Assembly (NCBI GenBank): GCA_027067055.1
Contig: JAMOMK010000134.1
Span: 1-64,000, forward strand
Direction: 5' to 3'
Origin: Lysobacterales bacterium
GTDB taxonomy: Bacteria; Pseudomonadota; Gammaproteobacteria; Xanthomonadales; Marinicellaceae
Length of the DNA: 64,000 nucleotides
The position numbers were made by a program, and so were the translations under genes. The notes under the pieces are model-generated. The model made no database searches. It was not told where the DNA came from and saw only the letters and a list, made by a program, of their open reading frames with translations. Shown in pieces: positions 60,581-62,237 of this stretch (its first letter is position 1; the number at the start of each line of letters is the position of its first letter).

Positions 60581-60688
60581 TTAGTAACTGCTGGATATTG
60601 TATGATTTGTTATTATCTCTTTTTGCTGAATCCGGTGCAAGTTTTCAGAGTCTGTTTAATAAATAAGACATCATTCATTTATTTCAAA

Positions 60689-60734
60689 TTGTCCGAATAA
60701 TTTGATTTTGTCCGAATAGAATAGTATATTGTCC
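60689..60734 (+). promoter_or_regulatory. Three phased TTGTCC repeats, probable operator
   Basis: TTGTCCGAATA occurs at 60689-60699 and 60708-60718, and a third, partial TTGTCC at 60729-60734. The spacing is 19 and 21 bases, about two helical turns, ending 5 bases before the Fic gene's ATG. The likely reader is the Fic protein's own N-terminal wHTH, which would be autoregulation. Confidence 0.6.
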
Positions 60735-60739
60735 AGGTT

Positions 60740-62128
60740 ATGAAGAAAAATGACCGAAAACAAGCTATATTGCACTTATTACATTCCTATAATGACCGGA
60801 TAGGCATGTCTGCGTTAATTGCAAAACTTGGGCAGGCTTTTAATGACCGAACTGTCAGAAGGCTTTTAAGTGAGTTAATAAAAGAAGGTAAAGTCATCAA
60901 ATCAGGTGCTGGCCCTAGTACGCAATACCAGATTATTAATACCAATATTCAAAACTCAGTTCATAACAACAAAGCGGGCATTGAAGAAGGAACATCTCGT
61001 TACAAACTCGAAAATGTCTTCCAACCAGAATCATTAAAAACAATCACAGCTATTCGACAACCGATATTTACTCGAAAGCCTGTAAGCTATAATAGAAACT
61101 GGATAAATGCTTACATTCCTAACCACACTTTTTACTTAAGCCAACAACAAAGGAATCAATTAGCACAAGCTGGCAACAGAACTTTAGTCAAAGAGGTTCA
61201 GCCAGCTGGCACCTATTCTCGCAAAATTCTCAATCGCTTGTTAATAGATTTATCTTACAACTCCTCACGCTTAGAGGGCAATACTTACTCAAAACTAGAT
61301 ACCGAAAAACTGCTGATGCAAGGTTTAAGCCAAAGCGACAAACTTGATGCCGAACGTGTCATGATTTTGAACCACAAAGATGCCATTGAATACTTGGTCA
61401 GAAATGCCGAACGTTTGGATGTTTCATACAAAACCATTTGTACTATTCATTATTTATTGTCCGATGGTTTATTGCCAACTCAAGACATGGGCAAGGTGCG
61501 CAACCAAGGAGTGCGAATTGGGCACTCAAGTTATTATCCACTCGAAGATAATCGTCGACTAGAGGCCAACTTACAAAACATCATCACCAAAGCAGCACAA
61601 ATTATCGACCCTTATGAACAAAGTTTATTTTTGTTGGTTCATATTGCCTATTTACAACCTTTTATGGACATTAACAAACGAACCTCACGAATTTCTGCCA
61701 ATATACCTTTGGTTAAATCCAATGTTGTGCCCTTATCGTTTAACGAAATCAATCAACACGATTACATCTCAGCTATGTTATCAGTCTACGAACTTAACCA
61801 AGTATCACCCATGGTTGACCTCTATTGTTTCTCCTATTTACGCACCTGCCAAGCTTATGATGCAACTGTAGAATCTATTGGCTTTGATCCAATTCGAGTA
61901 AAATACCGCCGAATTCGACGAGACTTAATTACACAAATCATTCGTCATAAGATAGATGAAAAAAATAGAATATCCCTTATCCAACAAGCATGCAACGACT
62001 CCGTAGCACTAGAAGAACAGAACCTATTTAAACAATCCGTACTTGAGGATTTGCAACAACTTACTGTCAATACTGTTTCAGGACTAGGCGTTAGTGAAGA
62101 TGAGTTTAATGAGTGGAAACAATCATAA
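60740..62128 (+). CDS. Fic-domain protein with N-terminal winged helix and altered Fic motif
   Basis: 462 residues. An N-terminal HTH (about 1-60, RKQAILHLLHSYNDRIGMSALI ... DRTVRRLLSELIKEGKVIKSG) leads to a Fic domain. The inhibitory motif is S175-S-R-L-E179-G-N, class II style. The catalytic loop reads LQPFMDINKRTSR at 305-317: Gln306 replaces the His of HPFxxGNGRxxR and Ile311 the first Gly; Asn312, Lys313, Arg314 and Arg317 are kept. AMPylation as in classical Fic is therefore doubtful. Members with Q-P-F-x-D-x-N-K-R form a distinct group as I recall. The gene diverges from xdhB across a leader of 159 bp. Confidence 0.87.
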   Translation: MKKNDRKQAILHLLHSYNDRIGMSALIAKLGQAFNDRTVRRLLSELIKEGKVIKSGAGPSTQYQIINTNIQNSVHNNKAGIEEGTSRYKLENVFQPESLKTITAIRQPIFTRKPVSYNRNWINAYIPNHTFYLSQQQRNQLAQAGNRTLVKEVQPAGTYSRKILNRLLIDLSYNSSRLEGNTYSKLDTEKLLMQGLSQSDKLDAERVMILNHKDAIEYLVRNAERLDVSYKTICTIHYLLSDGLLPTQDMGKVRNQGVRIGHSSYYPLEDNRRLEANLQNIITKAAQIIDPYEQSLFLLVHIAYLQPFMDINKRTSRISANIPLVKSNVVPLSFNEINQHDYISAMLSVYELNQVSPMVDLYCFSYLRTCQAYDATVESIGFDPIRVKYRRIRRDLITQIIRHKIDEKNRISLIQQACNDSVALEEQNLFKQSVLEDLQQLTVNTVSGLGVSEDEFNEWKQS

Positions 62129-62237
62129 CTCATAACCAAGATGGAATTAGTTTAGCGTGTGTATAAAAAATACATGTCCATCATTGCCCTTTCATACAAC
62201 AATGCTAAAATACCAATAGTTAAAACTTGAGAAAAAA

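What the first reader, a model, noticed from the sequence alone, without database searches (positions are those of the whole stretch)
60689..62128. Fic protein lacking the catalytic His, with phased operator-like repeats
Seen: LQPFMDINKRTSR in place of HPFxxGNGRxxR (His to Gln306), the class II inhibitory motif S175-x3-E179 kept, an N-terminal wHTH, and three TTGTCC repeats at 19-21-base intervals ending just before the start. The Gln substitution removes the usual base for AMP transfer. Inference: a regulator that controls its own gene and has a changed or lost transferase activity.
Basis: partly seen in the sequence, partly recalled or inferred. Interest (0 to 1): 0.55.

Follow-up and report, generated by a model that had tools for sequence, protein, structure and literature searches.

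The report
Self-operator Fic with glutamine active site
A mobile single-gene unit makes a Fic-type protein whose usual catalytic histidine is a fixed glutamine and whose own DNA-binding domain very probably silences its own promoter through a row of helically spaced sites, an arrangement shared by a large and little-studied clade of relatives.

Summary

It is a family trait. Gln306 is kept in 88 of 89 homologues, while S175, E179, N312, K313, R314 and R317 are kept in 89 of 89: a fixed variant, not decay. A Gln clade was noted in 2015 (Khater & Mohanty, 'D2').

New here: homologues carry their own operator-like arrays just upstream of the start (31 of 36 non-redundant homologues, against 8 of 79 control upstreams), with distances peaking near 11, 21, 32, 41 and 62 bp. 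The word differs between subgroups (TGTCCGAAT, TGGCCGTAT, TGGCGCGAT, TGTCCTTAT), roughly in step with the recognition helix. In this genome the exact 11-bp word occurs only here. The gene is solitary: a one-gene insertion relative to three congeners, also on plasmids and inside a phage tail cluster in reverse orientation.

Best reading: a self-repressed, auto-inhibited mobile cargo Fic with His-independent chemistry or ligand binding. Autoregulation has a precedent (CccR); the chemistry is untested.

The parts
60661..62222 (.). approximate one-gene insertion (operator array plus gene) relative to three congeners in which the flanking genes are adjacent
   Evidence: window matches to L125 stop at 60660 and resume at 62223; edges are approximate because the intergenic DNA is diverged
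60689..60699 (+). operator-like box 1, TTGTCCGAATA
   Evidence: exact 11-mer occurs in this genome only as boxes 1 and 2
60708..60718 (+). operator-like box 2, TTGTCCGAATA, 19 bp from box 1
60729..60734 (+). operator-like box 3, TTGTCC core only, 21 bp from box 2, 5 bp before the ATG
60702..60730 (+). sigma-70-like promoter (TTGATT, 17 bp, TATATT), interleaved with the boxes
   Evidence: 9 of 12 consensus matches, a number of hits that chance also gives
60740..62128 (+). Gln-Fic protein, 462 aa
60746..60934 (+). N-terminal winged helix-turn-helix, residues 3-65
   Evidence: model; HTH families in some homologues
60845..60883 (+). recognition helix, residues 36-48 (DRTVRRLLSELIK)
61262..61291 (+). 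class II inhibitory motif SSRLEGNTYS, residues 175-184
   Evidence: S175, E179, G180, N181 in 89 of 89
61655..61690 (+). Fic motif QPFMDINKRTSR, residues 306-317, Gln in place of His
61889..62125 (+). C-terminal helical domain, residues 384-462, function unknown

Best explanation
A stand-alone, mobile Fic module. (1) The N-terminal winged HTH binds the array of boxes that lies over its own promoter and start and represses the gene (inferred from comparison, strong). Binding at whole helical turns puts the copies on one face of the DNA, so that several molecules bind side by side (inferred). (2) The class II inhibitory helix (Glu179 against Arg317) keeps the nucleotide pocket shut, as in other class II Fic proteins (residues shown, role by homology). 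(3) The pocket itself is in use: Mg-ligand Asp310, anion-hole Asn312, Lys313, Arg314 and Arg317 are kept, but the general base His is replaced by a fixed Gln, so the protein either transfers a group by His-independent chemistry or uses the pocket as a ligand sensor. Of the two I favour an effector activity, because no gene other than its own appears to be controlled. The combination (silenced gene, shut pocket, mobile single-gene cassette) suggests a conditional growth-arrest or defence cargo, comparable to Phd-Doc rolled into one chain.
For: Array: 47 of 89 family upstreams against 13 of 157 control upstreams have >=4 copies of an 8-mer; 23 of 36 non-redundant members against 13 of 157, in-phase pairs 145 of 213 against 115 of 325; both-strand test 31 of 36 against 8 of 79; further sets: plasmids 10 of 11, viral contigs 9 of 11, three of them near-identical; canonical His-Fic genes 1 of 15. 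Word and helix: [DE]RTVRR with TGKCCG, RRTLQR with TGKCGC, KKTLQR/SKTLQR with TGTCCT. Own-gene-only: exact 11-mer at 2 places in 3.42 Mb, both here. Pocket. Fold: FICD-like, Z 25.1, rmsd 2.7 over 237. Solitary: no Pfam family in more than 3 of 111 nearest neighbours. Mobile: empty site in three congeners, 2 of 11 genus members with a full-length copy, plasmid and integrase contexts, inside a phage tail cluster. Precedent for autorepression by a class II Fic-HTH protein: CccR (PMC9755527, abstract and passages).
Against: No binding, repression, toxicity or catalysis was measured. The window alone is not significant in the generic repeat test (58 of 100 shuffles). Mutual information between operator and protein columns is confounded by descent: only for operator positions 3 and 6 is a recognition-helix residue (R37, D36) the top column; for the other four positions top columns lie elsewhere. 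The sister clade arrays (L010, L021) are not significant on their own (46 and 35 of 200). Mixed orientations are common: all sites point one way in only 9 of 29 members with three or more sites. GC of the insert equals that of the window (0.369), so composition does not show recent arrival. The promoter call is at chance level. A defence role rests on context and on weak resemblance to PADLOC models.
Confidence: 0.6

Rival explanations
1. A pure transcription factor: the Gln-Fic domain no longer transfers anything but binds a nucleotide or other ligand and relays this to the HTH, controlling its own gene and a few others (comparable in logic to regulators built from dead enzymes, recalled).
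For: His is lost in 88 of 89 while phosphate- and Mg-binding residues stay; wHTH fused.
Against: No recurring neighbour and no other exact operator in the genome; a regulator of itself alone would have little use; the target-binding and inhibitory parts of a transferase are kept. Sites with one mismatch exist (43 further places) and were not excluded as targets.
Confidence: 0.22
2. An ordinary AMPylator or kinase that tolerates Gln: residual or full NMP or phosphate transfer with Gln, the HTH simply autoregulating as in CccR.
For: Khater & Mohanty 2015 (PMC4454073, section 6 read) argue that the Gln clade need not be dead; Doc-like NKR motif; L016 with natural His nested among Gln sisters suggests the two states may be exchangeable.
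Against: One His in 89 shows strong selection for Gln, not neutrality; the cited His192 substitution in CccR removed its toxicity (passage).
Confidence: 0.13
3. The repeats are not operators of this protein but sites of another factor, or plain AT-rich repeats.
For: The window's own array is short and weak in the generic test.
Against: The arrays follow the gene into other phyla, plasmids and phages and change word with the protein subgroup; control upstreams of the same contigs lack them.
Confidence: 0.05

Closest known systems
CccR of Yersinia pseudotuberculosis (PMC9755527; abstract and passages read)
   Same: Class II Fic protein with an HTH domain that represses its own gene by binding its promoter.
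   Different: HTH at the C-terminus, catalytic His192 kept, two inverted 10-bp boxes 26 bp apart instead of an array of phased sites, secreted effector; no sequence of it was compared here.
Clade D2 of Fic/Doc, motif Qx[FY]x[DE][GV]NKR (Khater & Mohanty 2015, PMC4454073; section 6 read)
   Same: His replaced by Gln with NKR kept; 78 of 89 homologues here have V or G at the variable place, the window has I.
   Different: Described from 45 sequences as usually single-domain; no HTH, operators or genetic context are mentioned in the section read.
SoFic / EcSofic anti-phage Fic (PMC12249575; passages read)
   Same: Stand-alone class II Fic; a SoFic profile matches 34 of 38 homologues.
   Different: Canonical His (H194 in EcSofic), small antitoxin AS1 encoded downstream; the window itself does not reach 1e-5 on the SoFic profile.
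Human FICD (best solved-structure match)
   Same: Fic core with N-terminal inhibitory Glu and the two Arg.
   Different: His kept; TPR, no HTH.
Phd-Doc (recalled; motif from PMC4177925 passage)
   Same: NKR motif, DNA-binding domain that autoregulates.
   Different: Two proteins; Doc has His.
RptR (PMC12255303; outline and passages)
   Same: Autorepressor on three direct repeats in its promoter, mobile defence setting.
   Different: Unrelated 79-aa protein controlling a defence operon.

Membership tests
Fic/Doc superfamily (PF02661) | Profile match above the curated cut-off and Fic fold | tested here: met
   39.1 bits against 24; FICD-like model, Z 25.1
Class II Fic | Inhibitory motif (S/T)xxxE(G/N) N-terminal to the Fic motif | tested here: met
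   SSRLEGN at 175-181, 89 of 89 with S175 and E179
Canonical AMPylating Fic | HPFx(D/E)GN(G/K)RxxR with catalytic His | tested here: not met
   QPFMDINKRTSR; Gln in 88 of 89
Canonical AMPylating Fic | AMP transfer | not testable with these tools
   needs an assay
Clade D2 (Gln-Fic) of Khater & Mohanty | Qx[FY]x[DE][GV]NKR | tested here: inconclusive
   window has I at the [GV] place; 78 of 89 homologues have V or G; their sequences were not compared
Doc (Phd-Doc type II toxin) | His in HxFx(D/N)(A/G)NKR | tested here: not met
   Gln306
Doc (Phd-Doc type II toxin) | separate antitoxin gene next door | tested here: not met
   no recurring neighbour in 111 nearest neighbours of 62 loci, ORFs under 100 aa not included; nothing between 60581 and 60739 of 60 aa or more on the plus strand
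SoFic defence system | profile match | tested here: not met
   window lacks a SoFic match at 1e-5 though 34 of 38 homologues have one
Autorepressing Fic-HTH (CccR-like) | HTH in the same chain | tested here: met
   wHTH 3-65 in the model, but N-terminal
Autorepressing Fic-HTH (CccR-like) | specific binding to own promoter | not testable with these tools
   comparative support only

The most novel reading that the evidence does not exclude
A widespread clade of Fic proteins has given up the catalytic His for a Gln-based, still unknown reaction, and packs toxin, auto-inhibitor and self-repressor into one chain with its own private, subgroup-specific array of phased operators. This makes a one-gene, plug-in module that plasmids and prophages carry as independently regulated defence or dormancy cargo.
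Probability: 0.33. Interest if true: 0.75.

Novelty: new variant of a known kind. Interest (0 to 1): 0.52.

Why it matters
The catalytic His is treated as the invariant mark of Fic enzymes. The operator arrays give an immediate handle on expression and on DNA specificity: many natural pairs of recognition helix and operator word in one family, and a possible route to find what switches the genes on.

Tried and rejected
Decay of a dead gene: rejected, since 88 of 89 keep Gln and the other pocket residues are invariant or nearly so. A regulon of the boxes in this genome: the exact 11-mer lies only here; TTGTCC pairs with 11-17 bp spacers occur at 5 places, 2 of them these boxes, against 7 for the reversed control. 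The same word test in the congener G172 gave only background-like one-mismatch hits plus 3 exact ones elsewhere, and the two best at its own promoter have one mismatch: uninformative. A conserved partner gene: none. A leaderless-transcript idea: Shine-Dalgarno-like words in 16 of 83 family against 38 of 157 control upstreams (4 of 33 representatives), and -10-like words showed no sharp position: left open. Covariation of operator and helix by mutual information: confounded by descent. PDB second look: residues outside 97-381 barely tested, so nothing is said about the fold of the C-terminal part. Literature; two searches returned nothing; none of the listings showed a paper on operators before Gln-Fic genes, which covers this open-access library only. 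A first script for phasing stopped with an error after printing its main results and its remainder was rerun.

Dropped or chosen rows: the 89-member set is the window, 8 of the order-search loci and the best 80 of 575 confirmed genome loci; one of the two scan patterns spells [QH] at the key place, so the 88 of 89 count carries some selection for Q or H. Upstreams were cut at start codons chosen by script, and several (L017, L053, L055, L056) are doubtful. Of 75 plasmid and 3 phage records I read 16; of these, 15 have Gln and one (L152) is a His-Fic. Of the 16, 11 (long-type) were used for the array test; the short or remote ones L149, L150, L151, L152 and L157 were not tested. The control set is every second of 157.

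Full report
Observation. The gene at 60740-62128 encodes 462 aa with the Fic motif QPFMDINKRTSR (Gln306), SSRLEGNTYS (S175, E179) and three TTGTCC boxes at 60689, 60708 and 60729. Pfam sees only the Fic domain; the model (mean pLDDT 90.6, pTM 0.69, 38 sequences) shows a winged HTH at 3-65 with recognition helix 36-48, a FICD-like core and a helical C-terminal domain. The best solved matches are FICD structures (E 5.7e-10 by sequence; Z 25.1, rmsd 2.7 over 237 residues for 4u0u, tied with others). By alignment with FICD and recalled roles, Q306 takes the place of the catalytic His, D310 of the Mg ligand, N312 of the anion hole, R314 and R317 of the two phosphate-binding Arg, E179 of the inhibitory Glu.

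The Gln is fixed. A search of 299 genomes of the order found matches in 23, and full-length relatives in a handful, among them one congener at 64% identity. In 89 aligned proteins Gln306 stands in 88, His in one (L016, codon CAT against CAA in its sister L015); S175, E179, G180, N181, F308, N312, K313, R314 and R317 in 89, D310 in 87. In a tree of 67 Fic cores the Gln proteins group together (93/78), including a shorter sister type (QAFNDGNKR, of which this genome has one at C74), with L016 and the degenerate L020 nested inside; several long branches make the deep forks unsure. Members come from Pseudomonadota, Chlamydiota, Verrucomicrobiota, Kiritimatiellota, Acidobacteriota and Myxococcota (record titles). 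A Gln clade was noted in 2015 (PMC4454073, section 6).

The repeats are a family trait. Reading the upstreams showed a row of repeats before nearly each homologue, in different words. In 150 bp upstream, 47 of 89 family members against 13 of 157 other genes' upstreams on the same contigs have four or more copies of an 8-mer (Fisher p 2.4e-14). Distances between exact 6-mers peak at 11, 20-21, 31-32, 40-41, 52 and 61-62 bp, flat in controls (phase concentration 0.58 against 0.08). After thinning to 36 members under 60% identity: 23 of 36 against 13 of 157; concentration 0.64 (bootstrap 0.56-0.72) against a maximum of 0.37 in 2000 control resamples; 145 of 213 pairs in phase against 115 of 325. 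With both strands counted, 31 of 36 are significant at 0.05 against 8 of 79 controls. Under a strict same-strand criterion 22 of 36 against 16 of 157 pass, and the window does not. Further sets: plasmid members 10 of 11, viral contigs 9 of 11 with three near-identical, canonical His-Fic genes 1 of 15. The shorter sister type has visible TGAGCT-type repeats that do not reach significance alone (L010 46 of 200, L021 35 of 200).

Word and helix. The commonest words begin TGNC, but that scan was restricted to words of this form. TGTCCGAAT: window, L040, L045, L046, L048. TGGCCG(A/T)(A/T): the congener L012 and many Chlamydiota and gamma-proteobacterial members. TGGCGCGAT and TGTCGCGAT: a large beta/gamma group. 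TGTCCTTA: marine gamma-proteobacteria. Some members (L015, L019, L113) have arrays of other form. The start of the recognition helix follows: [DE]RTVRR, RRTLQR, and KKTLQR or SKTLQR for the TGKCCG, TGKCGC and TGTCCT words. Mutual information puts R37 first of 370 columns for word position 3 and D36 first for position 6, but other columns first for the other four positions; descent confounds this.

Position. The nearest box ends 2 to 68 bp before the start codon, mostly under 35 (29 representatives). In the window the boxes interleave with a possible -35/-10 pair at 60702-60730 (chance-level scan). This layout fits repression.

Self-contained and mobile. The exact 11-mer occurs twice in 3.42 Mb, both here. 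The nearest neighbours of 62 loci (111 proteins) share no Pfam family in more than 3. In three congeners the flanking molybdopterin oxidoreductase and amidohydrolase genes are adjacent, so that here the array and gene form a one-gene insertion of about 1.56 kb; 2 of 11 genus members searched have a full-length copy. Plasmid copies sit next to integrases, IS elements and, in two records, defence-type genes; others next to conjugation or metabolic genes. In the IMG/VR contig L158 the gene lies in reverse orientation between baseplate genes, the usual place of an independently expressed prophage cargo gene (recalled concept). PADLOC's candidate family PDC-S04 matches 38 of 38 members tested, SoFic 34 of 38, but these are Fic-domain resemblances.

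Mechanism. Shown: residues, fold model, arrays, phasing, solitary mobile setting. Inferred: the protein binds its own array and represses itself. This was demonstrated for CccR, a class II Fic protein with a C-terminal HTH, two inverted boxes and a catalytic His (PMC9755527, abstract and passages), and HTH-Fic self-regulation was suggested in 2009 (PMC2686095, passage). Also inferred: the pocket works without His. AvrB, a Fido protein, transfers rhamnose (PMC10866546, title, start of abstract and one passage), showing that this fold is not tied to AMP transfer. Since nothing but its own gene seems to be controlled, I favour an effector whose expression and pocket are both kept shut until a signal, over a pure regulator.

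Verdict. Observation confirmed; self-control well supported by comparison; the His-to-Gln consequence open but sharpened: fixed, not decayed. New variant of a known kind.

Noticed in passing
G000:C74:32699-33310 (L005, L010): A second Gln-Fic (QAFNDGNKR) of a shorter type in the same genome, also with TGAGCT-type repeats upstream; the genome has 10 Fic matches in all.
   Followed up: partly
L016: A natural His-bearing member (HPFEDVNKR) nested among Gln sisters, one base change from L015's codon: a natural experiment.
   Followed up: partly
L020: A relative whose Fic motif has collapsed (IAPFHSANAATAR) while the rest of the protein, wHTH included, is kept.
   Followed up: no
L158:3001-4350: Gln-Fic gene inside a phage tail/baseplate cluster in opposite orientation, with its own operator array.
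   Followed up: partly
L033: A canonical His-Fic with a significant upstream array (CTATTTCA, 0 of 100 shuffles), perhaps self-regulated in the CccR manner.
   Followed up: no
window:54549-55230: IS1595-type transposase in two frames, so probably broken.
   Followed up: no
window:55580-57703: Large protein ending in a Peptidase_S74 (endosialidase chaperone) domain with repeated head-like segments.
   Followed up: no
window:61907-62062: C-terminal domain of the Fic protein has a sub-threshold match to the epsilon antitoxin family (E 0.016, 16 bits against a cut-off of 25); likely chance.
   Followed up: no
L058, L089: Record titles call these metagenome contigs Chlamydia trachomatis; the isolate codes suggest environmental MAGs, so the label is doubtful.
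   Followed up: no
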